Below are positions 8,722-24,255 of a stretch of DNA of 24,255 bases, piece by piece. The translations under genes and the position numbers were made by a program. This DNA is from a virus: IMG/VR virus record IMGVR_UViG_3300000116_006912, positions 1-24,255 of that record; one strand, written 5' to 3'. Positions within the stretch are counted from its first letter, which is position 1. Every line of letters starts with the position of its first letter. The notes below the pieces were generated by a model, which was given only the letters and a program-made list of their open reading frames with translations, ran no database searches and was not told where the DNA came from.

Positions 8722-9541
8722 ATCAAATGATTATATCAAGAACACAATACTTTCCGACAAGATTCTAAGCGCAGGTAAGATAGGAAACTCAGAAAGAATA
8801 GGTCTTATTCAATGCAGTCAAAATGCGTTGGATGATTATGGTGTGGAAAATTTACACTATAATGCAGGCGTATATCCACCTAACTCCAATTCTCTTTATG
8901 CTTTCTGTTCAGAGTATGTTAACTCAATAGGAAAGATAAATGTTTTTGCACAATGGATCGCTGATGGTTTGGGTGGGTTTGTAGAAGCACCCATAATAGA
9001 TCAGTTGGCGCCAGACTCACAAAGAATTCATTCGCGGGCATTGGAACCTTTTTACCATGAAGATCCTTGGTCTTCTGCTTTGAAAGGTAAACGTGTTCTG
9101 GTTGTCAGTCCATTTGAGGATAGCATAAAGAAGCAGTATGATAAGCGTAAAGACTTGTGGGAAAACAAAAACATTCTTCCTGAGTTTGAATTGTTGACAC
9201 TAAGAACACCCATGTCCGCTGGTATATCTGATCCAGAGTTTGATACTTGGTTTGATGGTTTGACATATTTCAAGGAGCAGATAAAAGACAAAGCTCCTGA
9301 ATTTGTCATAGTTGGTGCGGGTGCATGGTCACTTCCGATTGTTGCATACTGTTCTGACTTAGGAATTGATGCGCTTCATATGGGTGGAGGTACTCAGATT
9401 TTATTTGGAATTAAAGGTAAACGCTGGGATAATCATGATGTAATTTCTACGTTCTATAATGAAGAATGGGTTCGTCCATCGGGGGATGAAGTTCCACAAC
9501 GAATGAATAATATGAGAATAGATACAGGACACTATTGGTGA
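8699..9541 (+). CDS. GT-D-like glycosyltransferase or related protein
   Basis: About 280 residues. The pattern GKIGNSERIG near the N-terminus resembles the start of GT-D-type glycosyltransferases, which carry a G-x-G-x-x-E-like motif near the first strand. FVIVGAGAWSLPIVAYCSDLGIDALHMGGGTQILFGIKGKRWD shows a Rossmann-like strand-helix-strand followed by a Gly-rich turn and the GKRWD ending seen in such proteins. The end EWVRPSGDEVP...GHYW is also family-like. ATG 8699 is taken as start; ATG 8705 is equally possible and a TTG at 8693 less so. Moderate confidence in the fold, low in the activity. Confidence 0.6.
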   Translation: MKMLTQSESNDYIKNTILSDKILSAGKIGNSERIGLIQCSQNALDDYGVENLHYNAGVYPPNSNSLYAFCSEYVNSIGKINVFAQWIADGLGGFVEAPIIDQLAPDSQRIHSRALEPFYHEDPWSSALKGKRVLVVSPFEDSIKKQYDKRKDLWENKNILPEFELLTLRTPMSAGISDPEFDTWFDGLTYFKEQIKDKAPEFVIVGAGAWSLPIVAYCSDLGIDALHMGGGTQILFGIKGKRWDNHDVISTFYNEEWVRPSGDEVPQRMNNMRIDTGHYW

Positions 9542-10494
9542 ATATAAACTTATTTGAATTTGATGATCATGTAATTGATACTGCTGAGTTTGACCACTAT
9601 CTTCATGGTGAAGTAGTTAAAGAATTTGAACAGGCGATTTGTGAGTATGTGGGTGCGAAATACGCAGCTTCTTTCTTCAGTGCATCATACGCTCTCTATT
9701 GTATAATGAAGAGTAGAGTGTGTACACCTTCAGTTCCTTTGATCATGAATCATACTGGTAGGTTCGCTCCCACTGTATCGGTCCCTTCTATGATTCCTCC
9801 TGTTGTTCCTAATGCAATACGATCAGTTGGTTACGATCTTGATTTTACAGATGACACTGCCTGGGTGGGTGGATCGTATCAACTATTAGAAAACGTAATT
9901 GACTCTGCTCAACGTTTGGACCGTAACCAGTATGTGAACGAATGTGCTGATGATGACCTGTTGGTGTTTTCTTTTTATCCGACAAAACCATTGTCTTCTC
10001 TGGATGGTGGGATTGTAGTCTCTAATAACAAAGAAAAGATTGATGATCTCAAGAGTCTAAGTTTTTATGGTATGGAGTACCATGAAGACTCGTGGAGTAG
10101 AAACCAAATACAGGTTGGATACAAGGCGTACTTGTCTACTATGCAAGCAACTATTGCACACAGAAATCTACAGAATCTAGATAAGAAGTATGAGATCATT
10201 GATTCGGTCAGAGATCAATACAACAAAGAGTTTGATCTAAACAACACAAGCCGACACCTATACCGAATAGAAGTTGATGACAACGAAAAAGCAATTAATC
10301 ATTTCAAGGAAAGAGGCATTGTGTGTGGTATTCACTATGCTCCTCTACACAACAGTCCTGTATTTTCTACAGGTCAGAACTTACCATCTGTAGTAGCTGC
10401 CTCTGAGAAAACATTGTCAATTCCACTACATCACAAGTTGACATCATCCGATGTATCATATATAATTAAATCGGTGACGGATTATTGGAGATGA
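9538..10494 (+). CDS. DegT/DnrJ/EryC1-type sugar aminotransferase
   Basis: PLP-dependent aminotransferase family that puts an amino group on a keto-sugar nucleotide. About 318 residues; most members have about 370, so it is short. Visible are the family ending of the large domain LLVFSFYPTKPLSSLDGG with the presumed PLP lysine K150, a preceding VIDSAQ with D122 where the family has an Asp that pairs with the PLP ring nitrogen, and the C-terminal IHYAPLHNSPVF. The start is GTG 9538, which overlaps the previous stop (GTGA) and has AGGA 8 bases upstream. It is followed by an FdtA-type ketoisomerase, the usual partner for 3-amino-deoxysugar synthesis. Confidence 0.85.
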   Translation: MNINLFEFDDHVIDTAEFDHYLHGEVVKEFEQAICEYVGAKYAASFFSASYALYCIMKSRVCTPSVPLIMNHTGRFAPTVSVPSMIPPVVPNAIRSVGYDLDFTDDTAWVGGSYQLLENVIDSAQRLDRNQYVNECADDDLLVFSFYPTKPLSSLDGGIVVSNNKEKIDDLKSLSFYGMEYHEDSWSRNQIQVGYKAYLSTMQATIAHRNLQNLDKKYEIIDSVRDQYNKEFDLNNTSRHLYRIEVDDNEKAINHFKERGIVCGIHYAPLHNSPVFSTGQNLPSVVAASEKTLSIPLHHKLTSSDVSYIIKSVTDYWR

Positions 10495-10500
10495 TTTATT

Positions 10501-10917
10501 ATGAAAAAAACAACTGTAGACGATGTTTTGTTTATAAACAACAAAACAATAATAGACGAATACGCTAGTCTGACCCCAATAGAAGGTGAGCGAGATGTTC
10601 CCTTTTCAATAAAAAGAATCTTTTATGTTAGTGGTGTTCGAGACAAAGCTACACGAGGCAAACATGCCCACTATAAAACAAAACAACTTCTTATCTGTTT
10701 GAATGGTAAGATTGACGTAATCTGTAAGGACGGGGAGCGCGAAGTCAGATACCTTCTGGAGTCACCTAAACAGGCTGTTCTTATCCCAGAAATGATTTGG
10801 GATGAACAGGTATATCAATCCGAAGATTCTCTTTTGCTCTCTATCTGTAATACCAACTATGACACCGAAGATTATATTCATAGTTTTGAAAAGTTTCAGG
10901 AACTAAAGTCTAAGTGA
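10501..10917 (+). CDS. fdtA: FdtA/WxcM-type sugar 3,4-ketoisomerase (cupin)
   Basis: 138-residue cupin. FdtA/QdtA enzymes move the keto group of dTDP-4-keto-6-deoxyglucose from C4 to C3 so that an aminotransferase can act there. The active-site block RGKHAH (His55, His57) is intact, followed by the family pattern [17 protein letters not shown] and [12 protein letters not shown]. Length matches the family (about 135-140). GGAG (10487-10490) precedes ATG 10501 by 10 bases. Directly downstream of the aminotransferase, it most likely forms a ketoisomerase-aminotransferase pair. The dTDP-glucose supply enzymes RmlA and RmlB are not in the window and would come from the host or elsewhere in the phage. 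Confidence 0.88.
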
Positions 10918-11543
10918 ATACTGATATAAAAACATGTGCAGTGATAGGAAACGCTCCTAGTATATTAGAACAAGAGTATGGAGAAGAGATTGATTCCCAT
11001 GACATTGTTATTCGATGCAATAGATCGATAGTTGATGGGTACGAAAAATTCGTAGGATCAAAAACAAACCTTCGACTGTTGAATTGTCATCTATTTTATG
11101 AAATTTGTAATAAAAAAGTTCCTGAATTTAATAAAGTATTTTCTAAAATAGAAACAACTTCTTTAAATGAGATTATAAAACCAGACGAACTTTTGGTGTT
11201 GAAGGATGATATGATTTGTTCAGAAATGTTGAAAAGAAATACCGAAGTGGAAGAACTTTTGCAGAATCGATGGGAGATGAATAACAGCGTATGCTCTATA
11301 AATTTACCTTACATCACAGATCAATCTAATTTAACTGCAAGAGCTTCTGCTGGAGCAGTTGCTATTGCATTGTGTAGAGCATGGTTTCCGCTTGCAACTG
11401 TAAACTGTTATGGGTTTTCTTTTTATCAAGAAAATAAGGATTGTTCTCATTATTATGAGAGCGTTGCTCCTAAAACATTGGGTCATGATTATGACAGTGA
11501 GAGAAAAATTCTTTTATCTTTAGATAGGGTTAGTTTTAAATGA
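10914..11543 (+). CDS. GT29-type sialyltransferase-like protein
   Basis: 209-residue protein with the four sialylmotifs of the animal-type family GT29. Motif [12 protein letters not shown]...[16 protein letters not shown]...[16 protein letters not shown] (residues 8-57), close to ST6Gal/ST8Sia sequences. Motif [15 protein letters not shown]...NCYGFSF (about 143-169). Motif III: HYYE (179-182). Motif VS: H-x4-E in GHDYDSE (His191, Glu196). Cys8 and Cys154 match the positions of the pair that links motifs L and S. Expected role: transfer of a CMP-nonulosonate to a glycan. It is shorter than animal enzymes and has no signal anchor, so it would be cytoplasmic. Start is GTG 10914 overlapping the stop (GTGA). 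The NeuB-, aldolase- and NeuA-type genes follow. Confidence 0.8.
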
Positions 11544-13042
11544 CATATTATATTTTCGAAATGGCAAATAATCATCAAGGTAATGTAGATCATGCTAAGA
11601 CTATAATTGATAGTTTTTCTGATTTGGCTATTGCTAAAAATGTAAATGCTGCAATAAAGTTTCAGTTTAGACAGCTTGATAGTTTTATTCATGATGATTA
11701 TAAGAATTCAGATCTAAAATTCGTCGAAAGGTTTAACTCAACTAAGTTAGAAAAATCTGAATTTGCTGAATTGATTGATTATGCAAAACAAAAAGGATTG
11801 GATGTTGTTTCTACACCCTTCGATAATGAGTCATTGACTTGGTTTGATGAAATGAATATTGATGTTGTGAAAGTGGCAAGTTGTTCGGTTGATGATTGGC
11901 CTCTTTTGTTTGGTGTGCGATCCTTGGGTAAGAAGACTGTAATTTCAACAGCAGGTGCTTCTATCGACCATCTCAAAAAGGTATATGCGTTCTTTAAAAA
12001 TGAGAAAGTTAATATCGCGTTTATGCATTGTGTTGGTGAATATCCAACACCATCAGAGCATTCAAATTTAAATAGAATACTTTTACTCAAAGAAACTTTT
12101 CCAGATGTTGAGATTGGATTTTCGACACACGAATCTCCTTTAGATGATACTAGCTGTGATTATGCTGTTGCTATGGGATGTACGATCATCGAAAAACATG
12201 TTGGAGTTGAAACCGAAGCCATCAAGTTGAATGCGTATTCTTGTACACCAGATCAAATGGAAATTGTGATTGATAAAATCAAATCACTTGATGAATGTAG
12301 AAATGGTGTAAGTGCTAATGAAAATGACACTCTTAGAGATTTGAAGAGAGGTGTTTATCTCAAAGTTGATAAGAAGGAGGGAGATGTTATTGGTATTGAT
12401 GATGTTTACTTTGCAATGCCGATTCAGGATTCTCAATATGATGCTTCTCATGTTTGTGGTGAATGGGGTTGGGTTCGTAGAGTTGACAACTTGATAGGAA
12501 CAGTCTTAACTAAAGATAAGGAAAAGAAAGATCCTATCCTGACAGGTGACGTATACTTTGTAAAAGCAGATAACCCAGCAATAAAAGATATAAAACAAAA
12601 AGTTAACTTGATTTTAAACAAATCTAATGTTACAATAACCAAGAAGGATTCCGTTGAGATATCTTGCCACTACGGTATTGAAAATTTTGGAGAAACTGGT
12701 GCGGTTATTATCGATAAAGTGAACAGAGAATATTGTAAGAAAATTATAGTTGTTCTTCCAGGTCAGAATCATCCCACACACTATCATAAAATTAAAGAAG
12801 AGTGTTTTGAATTACTGCATGGTGATTGTACTTTGATTTTGAGCAATAAAAAAATTGAATTGCAAAAAGGGTTGCCAATATTAATAGCGAGAGGTATTCC
12901 ACATTCCTTTTCCAGTAAAAGTGGATGTGTTATAGAAGAAGTTTCAACAACCCATGTAGTGGGCGATTCCGTTTATGATGACGTTAGTATTAATAATCTT
13001 CCGATTGAAGAAAGAAAAGTAAAGGTAAAACTACATGATTGA
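11540..13042 (+). CDS. neuB: NeuB-type nonulosonate synthase with C-terminal cupin
   Basis: 500 residues; NeuB alone is about 345. Residues 1-250 form the TIM-barrel condensing domain, which joins phosphoenolpyruvate to a 6-carbon amino sugar to give a sialic-acid-type sugar. Motifs are EMANNHQG (7-14), KFQ (40-42), STPFD (91-95), HC plus YPTP (163-171), STHES (195-199) and EKH (218-220). Residues about 265-345 look like a SAF/antifreeze-like domain. A cupin follows (about 398-475) with likely metal ligands in [12 protein letters not shown] (H411, H414, H416, E420) and a later H455. The cupin may act on the same sugar, as isomerase or epimerase; that is inference. ATGA overlap with the GT29-like gene. 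Confidence 0.88.
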
Positions 13043-14027
13043 TTTGAACAGCATTAAAGAAAAAATAGTGGGTCCTGTTTTTCCAATTATTACACCATTT
13101 TTAGATAACGATAATAATGACATCGATTATGATTCGTTGGAAAGTTATATAAAATTCTTATATGCAAATGGTGCAAGAGTTTTTTATGTAATGACATACA
13201 ACGGAAGATTTAGCCTTCTTTCTTGGGAAGAAATGAAAGACGTAAATGAATTTGTCACTAGGAAAGTGAAGAGCATTGACGACGATTGTGTTGTTATTGT
13301 CGCAGATCCAATGACAAACCCAACCAGTGTTAGTGTTGATTTTGCAAAACACGCAGAAGAAATCGGCGCCGATGTTATCAGTTTAATTTTCATGGAACGT
13401 TATCACTTCGATGATCAAGTTTATGATCATTTTAAAACTGTCGCAGACAGCACCAACATTGGAATACTTATTCATGAACAAAACCTTGATAGTATCAGGG
13501 GTAGTATTAGGTATCCATTGGAATTGTTAGACAGGTTAGCTGACATTGAGAATGTCATTGCTTTGAAGGAAGACAGTAAAGATGCTTTATTTTCTGAGAA
13601 AATTATTGATCTTCTATCCGATAGGTTGAATATTGTAATTTCTGGACGAGGAAAGAGACAATTTATACATTTCAATAATATGGGATGTCAGTCACATTTG
13701 GTAGGTGTTGGAAGTTTTGCCCCAGAATTATCTGTAAAATTTCATGAAGCATATAACGCTAATGATATGAAAACTTGTTGGGGAATCATAAACGAAATAG
13801 AAAGACCTTTCTTTGATATTGGAATGAAATATGGATGGCATCCAGTTCTAAAGTCAGCGATGGAAGAGTTTGGTTTGATGTCTAGAGTTGAACGCGCACC
13901 TCTGTGTAAATTACCAAATGATCAGCATGAAGAAGTTCTTTCTGTTCTGTCTCAAATGAAAAATTCTAAGTACTGGACCGCAGATAAAACTTTATATGTA
14001 AATTCTTTTGATGGAGTTGTGGATTGA
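13035..14027 (+). CDS. DapA/NanA-family aldolase, altered active site
   Basis: 330-residue TIM-barrel protein of the dihydrodipicolinate synthase / N-acetylneuraminate lyase family. Supporting blocks are GPVFPIITPF (13-22), the Schiff-base lysine in VIALKEDSK (K178) and GVGSFAPE. Two canonical elements are changed: the GTTGE loop reads TYNGR (residues 54-58) and the catalytic Tyr position reads His (IHEQN, H147). The lysine chemistry is therefore kept but the partner residues are not, so neither DHDPS nor sialic acid lyase activity can be assumed. It overlaps neuB by 8 bases and the CMP-synthetase gene by TTGA, so it belongs to this nonulosonate operon. Confidence 0.8.
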   Translation: MIDLNSIKEKIVGPVFPIITPFLDNDNNDIDYDSLESYIKFLYANGARVFYVMTYNGRFSLLSWEEMKDVNEFVTRKVKSIDDDCVVIVADPMTNPTSVSVDFAKHAEEIGADVISLIFMERYHFDDQVYDHFKTVADSTNIGILIHEQNLDSIRGSIRYPLELLDRLADIENVIALKEDSKDALFSEKIIDLLSDRLNIVISGRGKRQFIHFNNMGCQSHLVGVGSFAPELSVKFHEAYNANDMKTCWGIINEIERPFFDIGMKYGWHPVLKSAMEEFGLMSRVERAPLCKLPNDQHEEVLSVLSQMKNSKYWTADKTLYVNSFDGVVD

Positions 14028-14695
14028 AAAACATAGCAGTGATACCAGCGAGAGGTGGCTCTACTCGCTTAAAGGATAAAAACATACACCCACTTGGGGG
14101 AAAGCCTTTAATTAGGTGGATAACAGAGACTGTTTTAAACTCAGGTGTTTTCGATGAGGTTGTGGTTTCTACTGACTCTGATGGAATCTTTGATGTAGTG
14201 TCCAATCTTGGTGTGTTGAGACATGATAGACCGCAAGAACATGCTACTACAAAAGCTACTGTGTTGGATGCCATGTTAGATTTAATGAAACACTCTAGTG
14301 GGTATGATACGTTTTCTTTTTTCTTACCAACACATTGTGCTTTTATAGATCCAAATGATATTCGTGTAGGCATGGATAAGCTAAAAAATAAAAATGTTGA
14401 CACGGTTGTTGGTATGACAAAAATGACAGAAACAATTCAATTGGCATGTCAGATGAGTGAGGATTGCGTTCTTCCCGTCTTTGATAATCTAGAATGTGGA
14501 ATGACAAATAGTAAATATATTAAGAGTTATTATAAGCCAGCAGGATTTTACATGGGGAAGTGGAATCATATTCTAACTAGTAAGAATTTTTTCAAGGGTA
14601 ATGTCAAAGGAGTTATCATACCCAAGGAAAGATCTATTGACATAGATGATATACATGACATGAACGTAGCAGAAAATATTTTGACGATTGGATAA
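14024..14695 (+). CDS. neuA: NeuA-type CMP-nonulosonate cytidylyltransferase
   Basis: 223 residues, the length of single-domain CMP-sialic acid synthetases. The N-terminal nucleotide-binding motif is VIPARGGSTRLKDKN (residues 6-20; family IPARGGSKRLPGKN), followed by VVVSTDSDGI, the family LDAML region after ATTKATV and late SIDIDDIHDM with acidic metal ligands. It would activate the NeuB product with CTP, making the donor for the sialyltransferase-like protein. The start is TTG 14024, overlapping the previous TGA; GGAG at 14013-14016 with 7-base spacing supports it. The closely related CMP-KDO and acylneuraminate branches cannot be separated from sequence alone. Confidence 0.85.
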   Translation: MKNIAVIPARGGSTRLKDKNIHPLGGKPLIRWITETVLNSGVFDEVVVSTDSDGIFDVVSNLGVLRHDRPQEHATTKATVLDAMLDLMKHSSGYDTFSFFLPTHCAFIDPNDIRVGMDKLKNKNVDTVVGMTKMTETIQLACQMSEDCVLPVFDNLECGMTNSKYIKSYYKPAGFYMGKWNHILTSKNFFKGNVKGVIIPKERSIDIDDIHDMNVAENILTIG

Positions 14696-14699
14696 TAAC

Positions 14700-15380
14700 A
14701 TGACAAATACTATAGACGATATTTCTAAAACATTGATAGATAAGGGAATTTACATTTTCCCACAACCCGTTGCCACACCCGAACAGATTCAAGAGATGAT
14801 TGATATCCAAGAGAAGAATCTAGGACCTGATGATGGTTCCTATGAGTTTGGTAGATCAGGAAGAATTGGATCACTCAACAGGTGGGGAGGTACAGCAATT
14901 CATGATGTGTTTGCAAAGAACGTTGTGATAGAAACTGCAAACACATTTATGACTGAGGAGATGGGTGGTTCTCCACAGTTCAATGAGTTTCACATTACTC
15001 ACGATTACAGATCAGATCAAGGACTTGCTAGGAACGGACATCTACACTTTGATCGTCTCGGCACCTTTAAGTTCTTCATGTACCTTACCGACTGCGATAG
15101 GAGCAGCGGAGCTTTCTCCTATATTCCTGATTCCTACACGCTAGGTAAAGAACTACGAGAAAAAGCATGGGAAGAAACTTCTGACTATGGTGGTGCAAAG
15201 AATCGCTTGGAACTTGACTATCCTGATCTTGGATATAAAGCCAAAAATGCAGTTCCCATCGAGGGACCAGCGGGAACACTGTTTGCTTTCCATAGTGATG
15301 TGTTCCACATGGGGGGATCTGTGGACGAAGGAAAAGAGAGAAGAGTTATTCGATTCCATCTAGACACGAAATCAAGATAA
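14700..15380 (+). CDS. PhyH-type Fe(II)/2-oxoglutarate dioxygenase
   Basis: 226 residues. The iron site H-x-D is in GHLHFDRL (H116, D118). The distal His is H203 in SDVFHMGG, and R214/R215 in KERRVIRFH is placed to bind 2-oxoglutarate. Between them, FFMYLTDCDRSSGAFSYIPDSY and PIEGPAGTLFAFHS follow the phytanoyl-CoA dioxygenase pattern. A hydroxylation or similar oxidation of a sugar, lipid or small metabolite is expected; the substrate is unknown. ATG 14700 is chosen because the in-frame TTG 14688 lies inside the previous gene with no ribosome binding site. Placed between the CMP-synthetase and a C-methyltransferase, it probably tailors a sugar of the cassette. Confidence 0.75.
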   Translation: MTNTIDDISKTLIDKGIYIFPQPVATPEQIQEMIDIQEKNLGPDDGSYEFGRSGRIGSLNRWGGTAIHDVFAKNVVIETANTFMTEEMGGSPQFNEFHITHDYRSDQGLARNGHLHFDRLGTFKFFMYLTDCDRSSGAFSYIPDSYTLGKELREKAWEETSDYGGAKNRLELDYPDLGYKAKNAVPIEGPAGTLFAFHSDVFHMGGSVDEGKERRVIRFHLDTKSR

Positions 15381-15391
15381 TGGAGATGTAG

Positions 15392-16573
15392 ATGAACAAG
15401 AGAGAGTTTTTAGATTTAGGAAAACAACCTATTGCCAATGGTTTTTTGTATGAGAATGAATTCGATAAGGAATTCTTTTACGATTTAAATGTAGCTATTG
15501 ACAGGGACACACACTTGATAACGCATGTGGATTACGTCAAACCAGAGTTGATGTTCAATGACACATATGCTTATCGTGGTTCGATGTCTCTTACAATGAG
15601 AAAACATTTTGCCGAGCTTAGTGAAAGTCTAAAGAAAACTCTTCCTAGTAAGCCAAAGATTCTAGAGATAGGAAGTAACGATGGTGTGTTCATTAAGAAC
15701 TGGGACAAGGAAACAACCATTGCGGTTGAACCTTGTTCTAATTTTGCCAAAGAGACTAATGATCTTGGATACAAAACCTATGACGGTTTCTGGACAACTG
15801 AATTAGCAGAAACTATTCTAGAAGAAAACGGTAAGGTAGACTTGGTGTTTGCGGCTAATTGCATGTGTCACATTCCAGATCTAGATCAGACGTTCTCTGC
15901 TGTTGAAAGTATTCTCACTGACGATGGTTTCTTTGTGTTTGAGGACCCTTCGTTGTCTAAGATGATCAATGAAAATTCATTCGATCAGATCTATGATGAA
16001 CATCCCCATATCTTTTCTGTGATAGCACTTAAGAGTTTTCTAGAAAGAAACGGGTTGGTTATTGTTAGGGTTGACAACATCTCCGTTCATGGTGGTTCAA
16101 ATAGAATTTGGGCGCAAAAAGAAAAAGCAGCCAAGCCAGACTCTAGCGTGGAACAAAACACTACACATGAAAAGATCATAGGACTTGATACATTTTGTAC
16201 GTTTGATAGGTTTGCAGAAAATGTAGAGGACTGTAAAACTGATTTGCATAGACTCTTAACACGTTGTGCTGATCAAGGTAAGAAGGTAGTTAGTTATGGA
16301 GCAACATCCAAGTCCACCACGGTCTTCAATTACTGTGGTATTGGTCCTGATCTTATCCAGTATATAACTGACACTACACCAGAGAAGCAAAACAAATTTT
16401 CTCCTGGCGTACACATTCCAATTGTTTCTCCCGAAGGAAACTTCGACGACAGCGTGGACATTGCATTCTTGGGTGCATGGAATTTCGCAAAGGAGATTAA
16501 GAAGAAGGAAGAACTGTTCATAAATAGAGGCGGAAAGTTTATCAGTCATGTTCCTATTGTGAGATTTTTGTGA
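15392..16573 (+). CDS. sugar C-methyltransferase (TcaB9/TylCIII type)
   Basis: 393 residues. N-terminal FLDLGKQPIANGFL, middle SAM motif ILEIGSNDGVFI (90-101), active-site-like YDEHPHIFSV and the HGGS motif, then a C-terminal YGATSKSTTVFNY...PGVHIPIVSPEG and AWNFAKEI. This is the three-part plan of NDP-hexose C-methyltransferases that add a methyl branch to a keto-sugar. These enzymes normally begin with a Cys-rich zinc site, C-x2-C twice; here the protein starts at the following FxDxGxxP box and the N-terminal zinc cysteines are absent. GGAG (15382-15385) lies 6 bases before ATG 15392, supporting the start. Substrate probably a dTDP- or GDP-keto-deoxysugar. Confidence 0.85.
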   Translation: MNKREFLDLGKQPIANGFLYENEFDKEFFYDLNVAIDRDTHLITHVDYVKPELMFNDTYAYRGSMSLTMRKHFAELSESLKKTLPSKPKILEIGSNDGVFIKNWDKETTIAVEPCSNFAKETNDLGYKTYDGFWTTELAETILEENGKVDLVFAANCMCHIPDLDQTFSAVESILTDDGFFVFEDPSLSKMINENSFDQIYDEHPHIFSVIALKSFLERNGLVIVRVDNISVHGGSNRIWAQKEKAAKPDSSVEQNTTHEKIIGLDTFCTFDRFAENVEDCKTDLHRLLTRCADQGKKVVSYGATSKSTTVFNYCGIGPDLIQYITDTTPEKQNKFSPGVHIPIVSPEGNFDDSVDIAFLGAWNFAKEIKKKEELFINRGGKFISHVPIVRFL

Positions 16574-17751
16574 TTAAAAAAACTAAAATAAATTCAATAT
16601 CTGATATGCTTGGATGTAATATAAAAACTACGATGAGTATTTCAGAAGCACAAGAATCTCTTGTAGAATACTTAGTAAATAATAACATAGAAGGTGATAT
16701 TGTTGAATTGGGATGTGGTAGAGGATCTAATACACACCAGTTTGCCAATAGTTTTAAAAACCATAATAGAAATAATATAATTTATGGGTTTGATACTTTT
16801 TGTGGTTATACTAAAACGGACTTAATTGAATGTCTCCGTGACGACCCTGTCCTGGCGCGGGGATATATACAGAATCAAACCTCTGAGCGATGGGTTGTCG
16901 ATGAATCTATTGTAAAAACTAAGTTGAAAGATCTTGGATGTGATAATACAACAAAACTAATTAAGGGTGATATAAGCGAAACCACAAAAAAGTTTACACC
17001 CAAGAGCGGTAAAATATCAATGTTATACATTGATTGTAACATATATGGTGCCTCTAAATCTGGTATTGATAATTTAAAAAAATATTTTTCTGATGGTTGT
17101 TTGGTTGTTATAGATTCTGGTTTTTGCCAAGGTGAATTCATGGCCGACCGTCTCAAAGGAACGGGCACAGATGTTGATCCATTCGGGGTGATCACCGAGA
17201 AAGTTCTCGATCCGCTGGGCGGAGAACACAGGGCTTTGTATGAATATTCGGTCGAAAGTGGTAATGATTTATTTAGAACTTATTTTGGAAACTATATTAG
17301 TTATTTTGTTGAGGTTAAAAACATGAAAGAAAAACTTTTTGATATTAAGGAACTACCATCAATACAACAAATTCAATATAACGAAGACGATAGAGCGCAG
17401 CGTTGTCTCGATATATTTCCAGAAGCCAAGGAACAAATAAACATATCACATGTAAATTCAACGGATCATGTCGTAGCTTGGCATAAGCATAATATACAAA
17501 CTGATTATTGGTATTGTATTAAAGGTTCTTTCAAGGTAGGACTATCTGATGGAAATGATGTTGTGTGGAAATATCTTTCCGATAGAAATAATAGAACCCT
17601 TAAAATCCCCCCAGGCATTTATCATGGGTATAAAGCATTAGAGCCAGGTTCGGCTCTTTTGTATTATCTTACTGAAAAGTATGATCCTAGTGATGAAATT
17701 CGTGCTAACGTTGGGGACTTTGGTGAAACATGGGAAACTGAGAACAAGTAA
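16570..17751 (+). CDS. TylF-like methyltransferase fused to RmlC-like cupin
   Basis: 393 residues, two domains. Residues about 1-250 resemble TylF/MycF sugar O-methyltransferases: IVELGCGRGSNTHQF for SAM binding and a later MLYIDCNIYGAS and LVVIDSGF. In MycF the metal is held by Asp residues in IDxD and DDY; here these read IDCN and IDSG, so the metal site looks partly degenerate. Residues about 251-393 resemble RmlC-type dTDP-sugar 3,5-epimerases: VAWHKHNIQTDYWYCIKG, LKIPPGIYHGYKAL and YYLTEKYDPSDEIR. The start is GTG 16570 overlapping the stop (GTGA). The ATG at 17323, with its own GAGG, could also yield the cupin alone. Confidence 0.7.
   Translation: MIKKTKINSISDMLGCNIKTTMSISEAQESLVEYLVNNNIEGDIVELGCGRGSNTHQFANSFKNHNRNNIIYGFDTFCGYTKTDLIECLRDDPVLARGYIQNQTSERWVVDESIVKTKLKDLGCDNTTKLIKGDISETTKKFTPKSGKISMLYIDCNIYGASKSGIDNLKKYFSDGCLVVIDSGFCQGEFMADRLKGTGTDVDPFGVITEKVLDPLGGEHRALYEYSVESGNDLFRTYFGNYISYFVEVKNMKEKLFDIKELPSIQQIQYNEDDRAQRCLDIFPEAKEQINISHVNSTDHVVAWHKHNIQTDYWYCIKGSFKVGLSDGNDVVWKYLSDRNNRTLKIPPGIYHGYKALEPGSALLYYLTEKYDPSDEIRANVGDFGETWETENK
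17311..17325 (+). promoter_or_regulatory. internal RBS and ATG for the cupin domain
   Basis: GAGG (17311-17314) lies 8 bases before an in-frame ATG (17323-17325) exactly at the domain boundary. Translation from here would give a separate 142-residue RmlC-like protein alongside the fusion. Seen in sequence; use in the cell is inference. Confidence 0.45.
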
Positions 17752-17758
17752 TATTCTT

Positions 17759-18658
17759 ATGCATAAGAACCTTTTAATTACAGGTGGTTGTGGTCATATC
17801 GGATCTGCGTTGGTTAGGGAATTATCCAAGAGCTATTCTGTGACTGTGGTTGATGACATGACAACCCAACGGTATTGTTCTTTGTTCAACATGGGACGAT
17901 CGATAAAGTTTTTAGAAAAAGACATAGCCGAGTTAAATAAACAAGATCTTAACGACATAGATGTTGTGATTCACCTAGCTTCCATAACAGATGCAGCACG
18001 TAGTTTTGGCGATAAAGAGGAAGTTGAAAGAGTTAACTATACAAGCACAATCAAGTTGATGGATCTGTGTAAACTGACTAACTGTAAGTTCATTTTCCCT
18101 TCGTCTACCAGCATTTATGGTGTTGCTGCTGAAACTGTTTACGAGGATGATCCTTCTTTTGTTAATCCGCAGAGTCCCTATGCTGAATCCAAGATCAAAG
18201 GTGAAGACTATCTGAAAACATGTGGGTTGGACTATCTAATTCTTAGATTGGGAACAATCTTTGGTGGTAGTAGGGGTATGAGATTCCATACAGCAATTAA
18301 CAAGTTTTGTTATCAGGCTTCTATAGAACAACCACTCACGATATGGAAAGAAAATTACGAACAGCATAGACCTTACTTGGGTCTGACTGATTGTATTTTT
18401 GCCATAACTCATTTTCTAAATAGTGATCATTGGGGACAAACGTTTAATGTATTGTCGGGAAATTGGAGGTTGTCTGATATTGTTGATATGATACAAGCCA
18501 AGACTGAGGTGTCTTTGAACATGGTAGATACGCCTTTACTCAACCAGTACTCCTATTTGGTGAGTAATCAAAAACTTCTTGAGACTGGGTTTTCTCCGAT
18601 GGATGATCTTGAAGAAGAGATCGAAGACACTCTGGATATGCTGAGTAATTTAAAATGA
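17759..18658 (+). CDS. NAD-dependent sugar epimerase/dehydratase (extended SDR)
   Basis: 299 residues from ATG 17759. The NAD-binding TGGCGHIGS (residues 8-16) follows the first strand, and the catalytic set is FPSSTSIYG (S115-T117) and YAESK (Y141, K145). The length and the LILRLGTIFG block fit UDP/GDP/dTDP-hexose epimerases or dehydratases; which one cannot be decided. An in-frame earlier start at 17681 would overlap the previous gene by 71 bases and add residues before the Rossmann strand, so it is rejected. It ends in an ATGA overlap with an RmlD-like gene, which suggests consecutive steps on one nucleotide-sugar. Confidence 0.85.
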   Translation: MHKNLLITGGCGHIGSALVRELSKSYSVTVVDDMTTQRYCSLFNMGRSIKFLEKDIAELNKQDLNDIDVVIHLASITDAARSFGDKEEVERVNYTSTIKLMDLCKLTNCKFIFPSSTSIYGVAAETVYEDDPSFVNPQSPYAESKIKGEDYLKTCGLDYLILRLGTIFGGSRGMRFHTAINKFCYQASIEQPLTIWKENYEQHRPYLGLTDCIFAITHFLNSDHWGQTFNVLSGNWRLSDIVDMIQAKTEVSLNMVDTPLLNQYSYLVSNQKLLETGFSPMDDLEEEIEDTLDMLSNLK

Positions 18659-19392
18659 AAAAACTTTTAATTTCTGGTGGTAATGGTAACTACGCCAAAG
18701 AAATAATAAAACAAAACACTGAGTATGAAGTGTATGCTCCTACACGAAGTGAAATGGATATCACAGATTTGGATGCTGTTAAAGAAGTGGTAAAGACATT
18801 CCAACCAGATATATTTTTACATCCAGCCGCTCTCACTAGACCTATGGTGGTGCATACTGAGAACCCTGAGTTGAGTATAAATTCTAATATCATAGGAACT
18901 TCTAACATTGTATTAGCATGTATAGAGAGTGGGATTAAGTTAGTTTATATCTCCACTGATTATGTTTACCCAGGCACTGCTGGTGACTATAAAGAAGAAG
19001 ATCCATTATACCCTGTTAATTTTTATGCATGGTCAAAGTTGGGTGGTGAGTGTGCAGTTAGATTATATGAAAACAGTTTGATTCTTAGAGTTTGCATGAC
19101 AGAAAGACCTTTTGTTCATAAGAAAGCTCTGGTGGATTCTTATAAAAGTTTGATGTATATCGAAGAAGCTGCTCACGTATCTCTGAAATTATTTAATGAG
19201 TTTGGTGTTATAAATGTAGGAGGAGATCCTACAAATTCATATGATTTTGTTCGAGAGAACGAAGGACTTTCTCCAGACAAAATTTATAGAGAAGATATAC
19301 CAGAGTCGATGGCATCAAATAGTACCATGAATTTAGATCGTCTTAGGAATAGATTAAAGTTAAGTATAGGAATTAGAAGACATGAAAAATGA
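18655..19392 (+). CDS. RmlD-like NAD(P)-dependent sugar reductase
   Basis: 245 residues, short for RmlD (about 290). The N-terminal LLISGGNGNYAKEI has a Gly-rich loop in which the last Gly is Ala. YISTDYVYPG is the family STDYVF block, YAWSK holds the catalytic Tyr124 and Lys128, and HPAAL with the DIxD pattern (MDITDLD) is typical of dTDP-4-dehydrorhamnose reductases. It would reduce the 4-keto group of a finished deoxysugar. The shortened C-terminal part could mean a changed substrate site. ATGA overlap upstream and 11-base overlap with the next gene. Confidence 0.8.
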   Translation: MKKLLISGGNGNYAKEIIKQNTEYEVYAPTRSEMDITDLDAVKEVVKTFQPDIFLHPAALTRPMVVHTENPELSINSNIIGTSNIVLACIESGIKLVYISTDYVYPGTAGDYKEEDPLYPVNFYAWSKLGGECAVRLYENSLILRVCMTERPFVHKKALVDSYKSLMYIEEAAHVSLKLFNEFGVINVGGDPTNSYDFVRENEGLSPDKIYREDIPESMASNSTMNLDRLRNRLKLSIGIRRHEK

Positions 19393-20320
19393 TTTTAGCA
19401 TACTGCTCGTACTGAAAGACAGACCTCAATATACCAAAAGGTTTATGAATTCACTTGTCGCAGACCTTTTCCCATTCAAGGTGTTGATCGCTGACGGAGG
19501 TAAGGATACCGACATACAACGGTTGTTCGAAGAAAATGCATGGCCTTCTATAGACTGTGAATACGTTCGATATCCCTATGATGCTACCCTCGATGATTTT
19601 TATGAAAAGATGGCAGATGCAACATCAAGAATACAAACAAAGTTTGTTTCGGTAATGGACAATGATGACTTTGTACTCACTGAGGGAATTGAAAAATGCT
19701 TAGAGATATTAAAAGATCTAAGATATAGTTCTGCTCGTGGGAGAATAGATGACATGTCGGGAAATAACATGTACACGAAGTTTCCTAATGACATCACTGG
19801 AGAAACTGTTCTGGATCGTGTCAGAGATCAGACAAAACATTTTCATTCAAACTGGCATAATATTACTAGAACTGAACATGTACAGGCGGGCTGGTCTCTG
19901 TTGAATATAACTAAACCAAAAAATTGGAGGTTCACAGAACAGGTCACATCATATCTAAATGTTATATGGGGGGATGGATATAGAGGGGACTTCCCTTGGG
20001 TGGTTCATGATTATGGGGAACGAATACAAACAGAAAATGGTTCGCTTCAAAACCACTTTCCAGATCAAGAGACATGGATCAAATCTGATTATTGGTTGCA
20101 TGAATTTAACAAGATGACAGAAATTATGGGTGTAGCAATTTCGTACAAAGATAACATTTCTGTTGAGGATGCTATGAAAGAGTTCACAGAAATTTATCCA
20201 GACAAGCTACCAGACTTGGAACTTCTTTTAAATTCGAGAATTGCAAAAGCAAAGTCTATCGGGTATAATAAAGAACGGATAAAATTACTTTTCAAAACAA
20301 TAGAAAGGTTTGACGTATGA
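19382..20320 (+). CDS. GT2-like glycosyltransferase (DNDD)
   Basis: 312 residues. The N-terminal FSILLVLKDRPQYTKRFMNSL and VLIADGGKDTD are the first two strands of a GT-A fold, followed by FVSVMDNDDFVL with the metal-binding DNDD (93-96). ATSRIQTKFVS precedes it in the usual place. The remainder, rich in Trp and Tyr (FPWVVHDYGE), is probably acceptor-binding. The family is GT2-like; the sugar is unknown. The ATG lies 11 bases inside the previous gene. Confidence 0.75.
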   Translation: MKNDFSILLVLKDRPQYTKRFMNSLVADLFPFKVLIADGGKDTDIQRLFEENAWPSIDCEYVRYPYDATLDDFYEKMADATSRIQTKFVSVMDNDDFVLTEGIEKCLEILKDLRYSSARGRIDDMSGNNMYTKFPNDITGETVLDRVRDQTKHFHSNWHNITRTEHVQAGWSLLNITKPKNWRFTEQVTSYLNVIWGDGYRGDFPWVVHDYGERIQTENGSLQNHFPDQETWIKSDYWLHEFNKMTEIMGVAISYKDNISVEDAMKEFTEIYPDKLPDLELLLNSRIAKAKSIGYNKERIKLLFKTIERFDV

Positions 20321-20931
20321 GTAAAATTAATTTGGGTTGTGCATCGAACCCCCTTGATGAATATATTAATGTGGATATGGATACTCTCGAAGAGATGAGA
20401 TTAAGATACCCACATAAATCATTTTCCGATGACTTGGTGATAAAACAATGGGACATCTTCAACCTACCAGTCGAAGACAACTCTGTGGATGAGATTAGAG
20501 CAGACTGTCTTTTTGAACACTTAGATTTTAAAGAAGAGAAAAAAATATTCCATGAGTGTAAACGAGTCTTGAAGGTTGGTGGAACCTTGAACCTAGCTGT
20601 TCCTGATGGAGAATCTGTTCTTAGGTCGTGGTTAGAAGCTGAGGACGATTGGAAAGACTGGTACAGAGATGACGATGCAGCGATCAAAGAAAAACATTGG
20701 TTTGGCACATATGAATATTCTTACACAAACAGATGGGGATATTTAACAGCGTGTCTTTTCGGTAGTCAAAACGGAGAGGGACAGTATCATAAAAATTGTT
20801 ACACCACAGGAAAACTCCGAAACATATGCAAGCGATTGAATCTGGAAATTTTTCATGAAGAGTTGTTTGACTGGCCTAGTAGTGGAAACCTAGACAAAAT
20901 TATAAGAATAAAGGCAAAGAAAATAAAATGA
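20317..20931 (+). CDS. class I SAM-dependent methyltransferase
   Basis: 204 residues. It starts almost directly with the SAM motif INLGCASNP (4-12), then YINVDMD, and has VDEIRADCLFEHLDF and ECKRVLKVGGTLNLAVPD, the pattern of predicted methyltransferases that act on lipids or sugars and often sit in surface-glycan clusters. No extra domain. The substrate is unknown; the neighbouring glycosyltransferases point to a glycan. It overlaps its neighbours on both sides by ATGA. Confidence 0.78.
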   Translation: MSKINLGCASNPLDEYINVDMDTLEEMRLRYPHKSFSDDLVIKQWDIFNLPVEDNSVDEIRADCLFEHLDFKEEKKIFHECKRVLKVGGTLNLAVPDGESVLRSWLEAEDDWKDWYRDDDAAIKEKHWFGTYEYSYTNRWGYLTACLFGSQNGEGQYHKNCYTTGKLRNICKRLNLEIFHEELFDWPSSGNLDKIIRIKAKKIK

Positions 20932-21230: not shown

Positions 21231-21259
21231 AAGAAACCCAATCACATTATGGAGTGAAT

Positions 21260-22537
21260 ATGAGCCTACCAAAAGTTACATTATGCATGATCGTCAAGAA
21301 CGAAACTAAGATTATTAAAGAATGTCTTGAGTCTGTTTACAAGTACATCGACCGTTACGATATTACAGACACAGGTTCTACTGATGGAACCCAAGAACTA
21401 ATCAAAGAATTCTTTGATGAGAAGGGTATTCCTGGCGAGGTGTATCAGAGTGATTGGAAAGGTTTCGGTGATCATGCTGGTAAAGAAGGTTCTCGAACCG
21501 AGTCTATCAGAAACTGTCATGGTAAAGCTGAGTACGGATGGGTAATTGATGCAGATGACTATATCCATGTTGGTTCTAGCGGGTTTAGTTGGCCTGAAGT
21601 TATGGATGCTACTTCTTACGTGCTGAGAATTCAGCGTGGTGATTTTGTTTGGTGGCGCAATCAGGTATTTAAGTTGGATGATAAAGTTAACTGGAGATAT
21701 GTTGGTGTTCTCCACGAATATGCTGACTGTGATTTACAGGAAGACAGACGAACCATTAAGGTAGATGGTGATTACCATATCGTTGCTAGAACCGAGGGAT
21801 CAGAACGAAACGAAGGAATCACCCCACAAGAAAAGTATGGTAAAGACGCTGATATATTGGTTGAAGCATTGAAAGATGAACCAGACAACCACCGATATCA
21901 GTTCTATCTTGGTCAAAGTTATTTTGATTCTCAGCAATGGGAAAAAGCATATGATGCATATGCAACGAGAGTAGCTGCTGGTGGTTGGGAAGAGGAACAG
22001 TGGTATTCTGCATATCGAATGGCGATAGTCTGTAGCATCCTAGAGAAACCTTGGCCTGAAACTGCACAGCACTATCTTCAAGCGTATAACATGAGACCAA
22101 GTAGAGCGGAACCTCTTTGGCAACTTGCAAGAATTCACAGACAAGAACGAGAAGAGCATAGGATTGCTTATCTCTACGCAAAGACTGCATGTGAAATTCA
22201 GTATCCAGAAAACGATATTCTTTTCATCTCGTCTGAGATCTATCAGTGGCAAGCACTTGATGAATTTGCTGCCGCTGCTTTCTACGCGCATGATTTTCTC
22301 CGAGGATATAACGCATGTAAATCTTTGATTGAAAATAAATATGTTCCTGATTCCGAAAAGGAACGTATTGCTAGAAATATGAAAACATACGAGCAAAAAC
22401 TGATGGAACTCCAGCAGCAAAATCAGCAGATGCAAGAGGGTATGAAACAGCAAAATGAAGAACATAGACAAAAGTTGATACAGCAACGAAAGTCTATGGA
22501 AGCTAAGAAGAGAAAGAAAAAGAAGAACAAGAAATAA
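21260..22537 (+). CDS. GT2 glycosyltransferase with TPR region and Q/K-rich tail
   Basis: 425 residues. N-terminal GT2 domain: TLCMIVKNETKIIKECLESV, then DTGSTDGTQELI and WVIDADDYI with the metal-binding DADD (97-100). Residues about 190-340 are repeating helices with TPR-like spacing (YFDSQQWEKAYDAYATRV and similar Trp/Tyr/Ala patterns), a likely protein-binding surface. The end (about 375-425) is a Gln-rich coiled coil that finishes in a run of lysines. GGAG (21251-21254) precedes ATG 21260. It has its own late-promoter-like element, unlike the cassette genes, and is next to the fibre gene. This fits a transferase that binds a structural protein and adds sugar to it. Confidence 0.85.
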   Translation: MSLPKVTLCMIVKNETKIIKECLESVYKYIDRYDITDTGSTDGTQELIKEFFDEKGIPGEVYQSDWKGFGDHAGKEGSRTESIRNCHGKAEYGWVIDADDYIHVGSSGFSWPEVMDATSYVLRIQRGDFVWWRNQVFKLDDKVNWRYVGVLHEYADCDLQEDRRTIKVDGDYHIVARTEGSERNEGITPQEKYGKDADILVEALKDEPDNHRYQFYLGQSYFDSQQWEKAYDAYATRVAAGGWEEEQWYSAYRMAIVCSILEKPWPETAQHYLQAYNMRPSRAEPLWQLARIHRQEREEHRIAYLYAKTACEIQYPENDILFISSEIYQWQALDEFAAAAFYAHDFLRGYNACKSLIENKYVPDSEKERIARNMKTYEQKLMELQQQNQQMQEGMKQQNEEHRQKLIQQRKSMEAKKRKKKKNKK

Positions 22538-22538
22538 A

Positions 22539-22546
22539 CATAAATA
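22539..22546 (+). promoter_or_regulatory. T4-type late-promoter-like element
   Basis: CATAAATA, again with the core ATAAATAGA, lies just after the stop of the GT2-TPR gene and 24 bases before ATG 22570. A GAAGGGAAG ribosome-binding-like stretch follows it. Likely drives the fibre gene late in infection; not tested. Confidence 0.55.
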
Positions 22547-22569
22547 GAGTAAATGATTGAAGGGAAGTA

Positions 22570-23964
22570 ATGTCAACAGGGCCTAATCAAATTTTACTTA
22601 AGAGAAGCGATTCACCAGGCGTAGAGCCTAGTGGATTGTCTTTTGGCGAACCAGCAGTAAATACTTCTGATGGTGTTTTGTTTTTGGATAAACAAACAAA
22701 CGGAACTGTTGATGCTAATCACCACTGGAAATTTCATGGAACCACCAATGAAAGTATAGTAACTTCAGTCAACGGACGAACTGGTCCTGTTTTATTCAAC
22801 GCAGGCACAAACGTCACACTTACTACGGGTGTAGGTGGAATAACTGTTGATGCTTTTGGTGCAGGTTCAAATGTAACCTCTTTCAATGGTATCACTGGTG
22901 CTGTTACTACGAGTGGCTTACATTTACACGTTACTGGTCTATCGGTAGATGTTGGTATTACGTTCAGTGATGGTACTACTATGTCAACTGCTTTTACCAC
23001 CCCACTCAAGGGTAAACTAGATGCTATTGAAGCAAGTGCTGATGTCACTGATACAACCAATGTAACATCAGCAGGTGCATTAATGGATTCTGAACTTGCG
23101 TCTATTGCAAATGTCAAGGCATTAGATCAATCCGTTGTATCAGGTGCCAGTCCCACATTCGGCACAGCCAACTTTACTGACGCTTCTAATAAGCGGTTAA
23201 TGACAGATGCACAGGAATCGAAGTTGGATGGTATTGAAGCAAGTGCAGATGTGACTGACACTGCTAATGTAACATCTGCTGGTGCATTAATGGATTCTGA
23301 ACTTACATCTATTGCAAATGTGAAGGCATTAGATCAGTCGGTTGTGTCAGGTGCAAGTCCCACTTTCGGAACAGCTAACTTTACTGACGCTTCCAATAAG
23401 CGTTTGATGACAGACGCACAGGAATCGAAGTTAGATGGTATTGAAGCAAGTGCTGATGTAACTGACACTGCTAATGTAACATCTGCTGGTGCATTAATGG
23501 ATTCTGAACTTACATCTATTGCAGATGTTAAAGCGTTAGATCAGTCAGTCGTGTCGGGAGCAAATCCTGTGTTTACCAATATCACCGCCATTGTTGGTAT
23601 TAGTGTGGGTGCTGGTGGTCTTACGTTCAGTGATGGCACTACCATGTCAACTGCTATTAGAACAGATTCATATACAGGACAAATTGAAACTGCTGCGGAT
23701 AAAACTTACACCCTTGATCCAAAGGTTGCAACAGCAAGGACAGTCACTGGATTCTTCATTAAGTCTGCATCTGGTACAGTGACCGCCACTCTCAAGAATG
23801 GTTCTGACACAATCAAAGCAGCAAGTGTAAGTTCTTCGAGTGGAGATCAATCGTCACTTGGAAACACTTCTGTTGCTGCTGACGCTGTTCTAACCATAGT
23901 AACTTCTAGTAACTCATCCGCTCTCGATGTTATCTTTAACGTGGAGTATACAGCAGCATTATGA
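22570..23964 (+). CDS. fibre-like structural protein with tandem repeats
   Basis: 464 residues, Ser/Thr/Gly/Ala-rich, typical of phage tail or whisker fibres. The N-terminus QILLKRSDSPGVEP...FGEPAVNTSDGVLFL resembles the particle-binding start of many T4-like fibre proteins. VTSVNGRTGPV and VTSFNGITGAV are common short fibre turns. Residues 149-333 hold 2.7 copies of a 69-residue repeat starting KLDGIEASADVTDT, and TFSDGTTMSTA occurs once on each side of the block. The last 95 or so residues look like a separate beta-rich tip domain that may bind a receptor. No cysteine is seen. It may be a target of the neighbouring sugar-transfer genes. Confidence 0.82.
   Translation: MSTGPNQILLKRSDSPGVEPSGLSFGEPAVNTSDGVLFLDKQTNGTVDANHHWKFHGTTNESIVTSVNGRTGPVLFNAGTNVTLTTGVGGITVDAFGAGSNVTSFNGITGAVTTSGLHLHVTGLSVDVGITFSDGTTMSTAFTTPLKGKLDAIEASADVTDTTNVTSAGALMDSELASIANVKALDQSVVSGASPTFGTANFTDASNKRLMTDAQESKLDGIEASADVTDTANVTSAGALMDSELTSIANVKALDQSVVSGASPTFGTANFTDASNKRLMTDAQESKLDGIEASADVTDTANVTSAGALMDSELTSIADVKALDQSVVSGANPVFTNITAIVGISVGAGGLTFSDGTTMSTAIRTDSYTGQIETAADKTYTLDPKVATARTVTGFFIKSASGTVTATLKNGSDTIKAASVSSSSGDQSSLGNTSVAADAVLTIVTSSNSSALDVIFNVEYTAAL
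22958..22992 (+). repeat. flanking direct repeat, copy A
   Basis: 35 bases encoding TFSDGTTMSTA, repeated at 23621-23655 with two mismatches. The pair encloses the 69-residue repeat block. Confidence 0.7.
23014..23220 (+). repeat. 207-bp tandem repeat, unit 1
   Basis: Unit of 69 codons beginning K-L-D-A-I-E-A-S and ending D-A-Q-E-S; the next unit starts exactly 207 bases later. Confidence 0.9.
23221..23427 (+). repeat. 207-bp tandem repeat, unit 2
   Basis: Second complete 69-codon unit, beginning K-L-D-G-I-E-A-S. It shares an exact run of about 63 bases with unit 3. Confidence 0.9.
23428..23568 (+). repeat. 207-bp tandem repeat, unit 3, incomplete
   Basis: About 47 codons of the unit; after S-G-A-N-P the sequence leaves the repeat. 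Confidence 0.85.
23621..23655 (+). repeat. flanking direct repeat, copy B
   Basis: Second copy of the 35-base TFSDGTTMSTA segment found at 22958-22992. Confidence 0.7.
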
Positions 23965-24255
23965 GTCCTCATTGGTTATTCTTTCCTACACAGTCAACGG
24001 CTGCTCAGTACATCTATGAGGTTCAAACTGATAGAGCCGTAGTTCGTGGCGCACCTCAGACAGACAGAAGAAAAGAGGACAGCACAGGGACAGAAAGTGG
24101 TAGTCTAGCTGATCAATTTTCTCCTTTTGTTAACAATAGTCAATTTAGGTTGAGTAGTAATAGTATCATTCAATATAGGACCAATAATGATACGAGTACG
24201 GCAGGATTTGAAACCAAGGCTAATATCTCAAGTAATTTGACCTCCGCCACACTTA
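23961..24255 (+). CDS. unknown, probably structural protein, 3'-partial
   Basis: Open frame from ATG 23961, overlapping the fibre stop by ATGA, with no stop before the window ends (98 codons seen). It begins M-S-P-H-W-L-F-F-P-T and continues rich in Ser, Asn, Thr and Gln, with a charged segment QTDRRKEDSTGTESG. Composition resembles phage structural proteins and the overlap suggests co-translation with the fibre. No domain recognised; it is too incomplete for a function. Confidence 0.7.
   Translation, partial: MSPHWLFFPTQSTAAQYIYEVQTDRAVVRGAPQTDRRKEDSTGTESGSLADQFSPFVNNSQFRLSSNSIIQYRTNNDTSTAGFETKANISSNLTSATL

What the first reader, a model, noticed from the sequence alone, without database searches (positions are those of the whole stretch)
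22958..23655. Tandem 207-bp repeats framed by a near-identical 35-bp direct repeat
The 69-codon repeats share an exact run of about 63 bases, and TFSDGTTMSTA segments flank the block. Recombination could expand, shrink or swap the central shaft without touching the tip domain, giving fibre length variation. It is also a site where assembly could miscount repeats.
Basis: seen in the sequence. Interest (0 to 1): 0.5.

Follow-up and report, generated by a model that had tools for sequence, protein, structure and literature searches.

The report
Length-variable repeat in phage tail fibre
A tail-fibre-like gene of a probably marine bacteriophage carries a repeated 69-amino-acid segment, and the closest related virus found has, as assembled, exactly one copy fewer, which suggests that the fibre shaft changes by whole units; similar changes are already known in other phages.

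Summary
In a 464-aa tail-fibre-like gene (22570-23964) of a T4-like phage fragment, a 207-bp (69-codon) unit occurs 2.7 times (23020-23577). Units 2 and 3 share an exact 63-bp run; a 35-bp direct repeat (33/35) frames the block.

The nearest relative found, contig 3300023196_001110, has no substitution in 812 aligned bp of the shaft region, while adjacent flanks differ by 3-14%. It lacks exactly one 207-bp unit, and both ends of that indel fall in the 63-bp run. This fits shaft exchange between diverged phages plus one in-frame unit change, with most of the C-terminal domain unchanged.

It does not look like a fast switch: 0 of 16 ORF pairs at >=99% identity have a large internal gap, against 4 of 8 pairs at 91-98%. 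The framing repeat is two copies of a recurring linker motif, though its two copies are unusually alike. Assembly collapse at the 63-bp run is not excluded for the key pair.

Duplication and loss of fibre segments is known (T4, OP1/Xp10, EfV12-phi1), so this is a new member of a known kind. No effect on host range or fibre length was tested.

The parts
22570..23964 (+). Tail-fibre-like gene, 464 aa
   Evidence: ORF; PHROG 24456 'tail fiber protein' E 1.2e-34 and PHROG 892 E 4.6e-19; no Pfam family over its cut-off
22570..22957 (+). N-terminal part, perhaps virion attachment
   Evidence: 51% identical in L012 (113 aa) and L057 (119 aa); pLDDT blocks 43-52. Attachment role is inference
22958..22992 (+). 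Left copy of framing repeat / linker motif ITFSDGTTMSTA
   Evidence: 33/35 identical to 23621-23655
23020..23226 (+). Repeat unit 1 (69 aa)
23227..23433 (+). Repeat unit 2 (69 aa); one unit length is absent from L004, with the junction between units 2 and 3
23434..23577 (+). Repeat unit 3, truncated (48 aa)
23254..23316 (+). Exact 63-bp run, copy in unit 2; contains the indel junction of L004
23461..23523 (+). Exact 63-bp run, copy in unit 3
23621..23655 (+). Right copy of framing repeat / linker motif LTFSDGTTMSTA, starting 16 aa before the YTG of the C-terminal domain
23653..23961 (+). C-terminal beta-sandwich domain (probable tip), shared by otherwise different fibre ORFs
   Evidence: 42 distinct sequences, window included; pLDDT blocks 78-95; fold matches up to Z 10.4
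22762..23780 (+). Tract with 0 substitutions against contig 3300023196_001110 (apart from one 207-bp indel), between diverged flanks
21254..22537 (+). Upstream glycosyltransferase gene, same order in relatives
   Evidence: PF00535, PHROG 13126, order
23961..24255 (+). Downstream gene (cut by the window end), same order in relatives

Best explanation
This is a modular tail-fibre-like gene of an uncultivated, probably marine, T4-like phage. SHOWN on the assembled sequences: the 207-bp units encode a 69-residue repeat between a separate N-terminal part and a conserved C-terminal domain. Related phages differ in unit number. In the closest pair the difference is exactly 207 bp, with both ends inside the 63 bp that units 2 and 3 share, and the shaft lies in a tract identical between two phages whose flanks differ. 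INFERRED: the units form the fibre shaft (predicted as alternating short and long helices), so adding or losing one changes shaft length by a few nanometres while the tip is kept. The changes arise by homologous recombination between units, within one genome or between co-infecting phages. The 63-bp identical run is either the site used for a deletion or the footprint of an insertion; the direction is not settled.
For: Tail-fibre PHROG matches. L004 lacks exactly 207 bp: it equals the window up to 23253 (unit 2) and again from 23461 (unit 3), so its last unit joins unit 2's left end to unit 3's right end through the 63-bp run. Tract 22762-23780: 0 of 812 substitutions, against 43/1300 in 21281-22580, 12 in 22675-22761, 38 in 23781-24255 and 17-35 per 100 further left (20281-20780); at the 43/1300 rate P(0 in 812) is about 1.4e-12. 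Differences between units 2 and 3 cluster: 2/27, 0/63, 17/54; P(gap >=63) 1.4e-4 in 200,000 random placements. Other pairs with a unit match fewer and a gap of 40 aa or more: L011 against L008/L009 (57 aa holding a unit piece, plus 55 aa without), L123 against L124 (82 and 37 aa). Two AF2 models give helices repeating every 69 residues.
Against: One key pair only; no reads. That contig is held in two pieces with positions 2441-2450 missing, inside the N-terminal coding region. Turnover is slow: no large gap in 16 pairs at >=99%, and in the L008/L009/L011/L013 group most units are closest to the same-position unit of the sister phage; in L006/L007/L010, in contrast, units 4 and 8 are closest to their own neighbours. 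Shaft models have middling confidence (pLDDT blocks about 54-86) and are monomers; the predicted helices have low hydrophobic moments (0.04-0.17 near 100 degrees), which does not support a simple amphipathic coiled coil. No solved structure matches by sequence. Location in the virion was not tested.
Confidence: 0.72

Rival explanations
1. The one-unit difference between the window and contig 3300023196_001110 is an assembly artefact: a k-mer assembler skipped the loop between the two exact 63-bp copies, or the contig is a chimera or a merged consensus.
For: The junction falls exactly in the 63-bp exact repeat, where a short k-mer graph is ambiguous; the contig has a hole about 90 bp left of the identity tract.
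Against: Other relatives with the same C-terminal domain have 1+partial (L005), a partial unit only (L012) or none detected (L019, cut at its start), and L011 has one unit match fewer than L008/L009, so number varies without this pair. L005's longest exact repeat at lag 207 is 41 bp. One switch point cannot give diverged-identical-diverged sequence inside the hole-free L004 stretch; two switches or merged variants could.
Confidence: 0.2
2. The units are an ordinary fibre-shaft periodicity; number changes are rare neutral by-products of recombination with no adaptive use.
For: 0 of 16 ORF pairs at >=99% identity have a large internal gap; many units keep positional identity between phages; 19 silent against 3 amino-acid-changing codons between units 1 and 2 show constraint on the protein.
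Against: The recent shaft tract, and cases elsewhere in which fibre duplications went with changed infectivity or host range (PMC6365445, PMC2248197, passages read).
Confidence: 0.45
3. A dedicated diversification device (reverse-transcriptase template/variable repeats or a phase-variable switch) acts on this block.
For: Repeated identical stretches inside a fibre gene.
Against: No same-strand 16-mer of the block recurs elsewhere in the window (opposite strand and the rest of the genome not searched); units 1 and 2 differ mostly at silent sites; the indel is in frame, not on/off; no reverse transcriptase was searched for.
Confidence: 0.03

Closest known systems
T4 tail-fibre adhesin small-domain duplications (Tetart et al. 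1996; seen only as cited in other papers; gp37 named from a passage of PMC9004378 and recall)
   Same: in-frame duplication of a short fibre segment in a T4-type phage
   Different: there the adhesin is duplicated and host range expands; here the repeated part precedes the C-terminal domain, and there are no host-range data
Xanthomonas phages OP1 / Xp10 / Xop411 tail-fibre domain duplications (PMC2248197, passages read)
   Same: related phages differ by number of short domains in the fibre gene, and short repeats are proposed to mediate it
   Different: there domains within about 118 aa at the N-terminus, isolates with host-range mutants; here 69-aa units, metagenomic contigs only
Enterococcus phage EfV12-phi1 1.8-kb tandem tail-fibre duplications (PMC6365445, abstract and passages read)
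   Same: in-frame tandem copy-number change upstream of a predicted binding domain
   Different: there fresh copies arising within an 8-day coevolution experiment; here diverged copies (88% DNA identity for units 1 and 2) and slow natural change
BACON-domain tandem arrays in crAss-like phage tail-associated proteins (PMC6949934, abstract and section 3.4 read)
   Same: tandem domains in a tail-associated protein, positional conservation plus horizontal exchange
   Different: named as a different domain (no comparison made here); single-unit indels between near-identical alleles are not described in the section read
Podophage Lau218 tail fibre (NC_024329, KJ183192, KJ183193)
   Same: annotated fibre protein carrying a match to the unit
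   Different: each record has one partial match, positions 2-37 of the unit profile

Membership tests
PHROG 24456 / 892 tail fibre proteins | profile match over the repeat region | tested here: met
   E 1.2e-34 and 4.6e-19
Phage tail fibre (virion component) | protein present in the virion tail | not testable with these tools
   needs proteomics or EM
T4-like phage genome | T4-type replication genes in the same record | tested here: met
   clamp PHROG 223 E 8.5e-75, clamp loader PHROG 168 E 1.1e-120; clamp loader 55.8-57.7% identical in the 12 listed of 2525 matching phage records, mostly marine T4-like phages by name
T4-like phage genome | T4-type capsid, portal and terminase genes | not tested
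   not looked for; the 24-kb fragment is incomplete
Fibre genes with copy-number-variable repeats | related genomes differ by whole in-frame units | tested here: met
   207-bp indel window/L004; 4 of 24 near-relative pairs have an internal gap of 40 aa or more and one unit match fewer in the shorter ORF; on assembled contigs only
Fibre genes with copy-number-variable repeats | unit number changes host range or infectivity | not testable with these tools
   no cultured host
T4-adhesin-type duplication | duplicated segment lies in the receptor-binding tip | tested here: inconclusive
   repeats lie N-terminal to the conserved C-terminal domain, but which part binds the receptor is inference
Diversity-generating retroelement target | template repeat near the gene | tested here: inconclusive
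   no same-strand 16-mer copy elsewhere in the 24-kb window; rest of genome unknown
TNF/C1q/BclA-like jelly-roll domain (C-terminal domain; family labels partly recalled) | jelly-roll beta-sandwich fold | tested here: inconclusive
   Z 10.4 to a phage 7-7-1 fibre domain, but many unrelated sandwiches lie at Z 8-10, BclA at 7.8

The most novel reading that the evidence does not exclude
The fibre shaft is an exchangeable, length-adjustable cassette in this phage group: whole shafts move between diverged phages under a conserved tip, and a recombination slot in the conserved first half of the unit lets one length step of a few nanometres be added or removed, tuning reach through host surface glycans that the same phage may also remodel.
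Probability: 0.15. Interest if true: 0.5.

Novelty: new member of a known kind. Interest (0 to 1): 0.3.

Why it matters
It gives a natural pair of assembled alleles that differ by one unit inside an otherwise identical tract, which makes fibre-length evolution in uncultivated phages testable, and it warns that repeat counts in viral contigs need checking. The phenomenon itself is known.

Tried and rejected
Considered and rejected or weakened: the framing 35-bp repeat as a special recombination site (recurring linker motif, though its two copies are unusually alike); a rapid switch; homogenisation of neighbouring units as the general rule (exceptions in L006/L007/L010, and the 63-bp patch looks converted or duplicated); self-duplication of the L004 array as the origin of unit 2 (unit 2 differs from unit 1 at 13 of 117 bases in positions 91-207 while the rest of the tract shows no change), although import of a unit from a third phage is open.

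Led nowhere or weak: solved-structure sequence search (one hit, E 0.92); Pfam (three weak hits, none over cut-off); the C-terminal part (23614-23961) had no match at E 0.1 in 50,697 phage records; PDB fold matches of the C-terminal domain are many sandwiches of similar Z; in the viral library 24 of the 50 listed matches have no name; a first ORF-pair survey filtered on gapped identity, missed pairs with large gaps, and was replaced. Genome contigs gave 12 loci from 66 stretches, 41-77% identical in the best segment. Paper searches used general words and did not target this unit, so I make no claim that it is unpublished. PMC9004378 was opened for passages and used only for a citation of the T4 work.

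Dropped rows: contigs fetched twice were left out by script and by hand when counting; one search also left out unit matches under 60 bits. In one search the pair L129/L133 lies on one contig and is left out of my counts (24 of 25 pairs used). The 16 pairs at >=99% form 10 clusters, many with one or two unit matches or cut ends, and identical pairs may be one virus assembled twice; L008/L009 against L011 are not independent.

Full report
Observation. The block is real. The ORF 22570-23964 (+) encodes 464 aa. Units of 207 bp start at 23020, 23227 and 23434; the third matches the unit for 48 codons. Units 1 and 2 agree at 183/207 bp and 66/69 aa, with 19 codons changed silently and 3 in sense. 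Units 2 and 3 share an exact 63-bp run, 23254-23316 = 23461-23523, the longest exact direct repeat in the window; 30 Markov sequences gave 13-18 bp. The framing repeat 22958-22992 / 23621-23655 agrees at 33/35.

What the gene is. The protein matches PHROG tail-fibre families 24456 (E 1.2e-34) and 892 (E 4.6e-19) and no Pfam family over cut-off. The window also holds a T4-type sliding clamp and clamp loader, the latter 55.8-57.7% identical in the 12 listed of 2525 matching phage records, mostly marine T4-like phages. The window is the whole of a 24,255-base virus record and ends inside the next gene. 'Marine' is inferred from relatives.

Anatomy in relatives. A scan with the whole protein gave 52 viral loci. 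After leaving out contigs fetched twice, one search printed 27 contigs besides the window; 16 of the 27 show glycosyltransferase - fibre ORF with the same C-terminal domain - downstream gene in that order (L066 on a weak 77-aa glycosyltransferase match), and the key contig has the glycosyltransferase too, on its L058 piece. Several others are cut. The body between the ends is very variable, and the 69-aa units were detected in 5 of the 27: L004 and L005 1+partial, L012 partial only, L014 and L015 cut. Of 50,697 named phage records 24 match at E 0.01: Lau218 records, roseophages, P-SCSP1 cyanophages and a Nocardia phage.

The key comparison. Contig 3300023196_001110 is held in two pieces, L058 (1-2440) and L004 (from 2451). 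Against the window it differs at 17-35 of 100 bases per block over 20281-20780, 43 of 1300 over 21281-22580, 12 in 22675-22761, 0 of 812 over 22762-23780, and 38 over 23781-24255 plus small gaps. Inside the identical tract it lacks exactly 207 bp. Its sequence follows unit 2 up to 23253 and resumes in unit 3 from 23461; because 23254-23316 and 23461-23523 are identical, the junction lies somewhere in those 63 bp. At the 43/1300 rate the chance of no difference in 812 is about 1.4e-12, assuming an even rate. This fits recent exchange of the shaft between two lineages plus one in-frame unit indel. Direction is open: L004 may have lost a unit by recombination in a pre-existing identical run, or the window may have gained a foreign unit with the run duplicated. 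A plain self-duplication of the L004 array is unlikely, since unit 2 differs from unit 1 at 13 of its last 117 bases. Assembly collapse at the same 63 bp would give the same picture and is not excluded.

How often. Among 109 unit-bearing ORFs (cut ones included), 25 of 95 candidate pairs reached 88% identity over 150 or more ungapped positions; one pair lies on one contig and is dropped. Of the 24 left, 0 of 16 at >=99% identity have an internal gap of 40 aa or more, and 4 of 8 at 90.8-98.1% do: window/L004 (69 aa), L008/L011 and L009/L011 (55 and 57 aa; not independent; the 57-aa one holds a unit piece), L123/L124 (82 and 37 aa); in each the shorter ORF has one unit match fewer. L006 and L007 differ instead by a 12-aa collagen-like segment. 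In the L008/L009/L011/L013 group most units are closest to the same-position unit of the sister phage, while in L006/L007/L010 units 4 and 8 are closest to their own neighbours. So the number seems to change over evolutionary time rather than as a quick switch.

The framing repeat. A loose pattern for [ILV]TFxDGTxxxTA occurs in 21 of 48 ORFs with this C-terminal domain, and in 19 of 48 a copy starts 15-17 residues before the YTG that opens the domain; 27 of 48 have none (counted from the printed list; some contigs are near-duplicates). The framing copies are therefore two linker motifs. Against a purely ordinary reading, their DNA agrees at 31 of 33 bases, where 7 within-ORF pairs average 26.7 and 84 between-ORF pairs 24.2, so recent duplication or conversion is possible. 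Recombination between them would remove 663 bp in frame (arithmetic); I did not identify an allele made that way.

Structure. AF2 on the whole protein (45 rows) gives a C-terminal beta-sandwich (10-residue blocks 78-95) and helices in the repeats at a 69-residue period (blocks about 54-80). A model of the array alone (25 rows) repeats this: helices 21-50, 90-119, 159-188; the two models share method and sequence. Helix hydrophobic moments are low, so a coiled coil is not supported by that test. The C-terminal domain's first match is a phage 7-7-1 tail-fibre domain at Z 10.4, 103 residues, 2.2 A, but unrelated proteins are tied. A trimeric shaft is inference. With 12-20 residues per nm, a rule stated in PMC3556154 (passage), one unit would be about 3.5-5.8 nm.

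Known cases. Fibre-domain duplications that go with changed host range or infectivity are in print: T4 (Tetart 1996, seen only as cited), Xanthomonas phages (PMC2248197, passages), EfV12-phi1 (PMC6365445, abstract and passages); BACON arrays show positional stability and exchange (PMC6949934, abstract and one section). The finding is a new member of this kind.

Noticed in passing
window 9535-19392: Sialic-acid-like gene block on a T4-like phage fragment: DegT aminotransferase, FdtA, a GT29 sialyltransferase-family gene (10914-11543), NeuB (11540-13042), DHDPS-like, cytidylyltransferase, epimerase-like genes. At E 1e-5 the GT29 protein matches 1 of 50,697 phage records and the NeuB protein 3 of 50,697.
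   Followed up: partly
window 21254-22537: Glycosyltransferase-2 gene directly upstream of the fibre gene, in the same order in 16 of 27 distinct contigs; a lysine-rich C-terminus.
   Followed up: partly
window 23653-23961: C-terminal domain found as 42 distinct sequences, window included, in viral contigs with otherwise different fibre bodies; no match in 50,697 named phage records at E 0.1.
   Followed up: partly
L006 4261-7569 and L007 4225-7569: Near-identical fibre ORFs (1101/1103) that differ by a 12-aa collagen-like GPQGNTGNTGNT segment, perhaps a faster-changing repeat than the 69-aa unit.
   Followed up: no
window 23115-23501, minus strand: The reverse strand of the array translates to something weakly like the unit itself (E 9.7e-9, 42% identity, with stops), perhaps a composition effect.
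   Followed up: no
window 3050-3382: Short GroES-like co-chaperonin gene (PHROG 3188, E 1.5e-6), reminiscent of T4 gp31 (name recalled).
   Followed up: no
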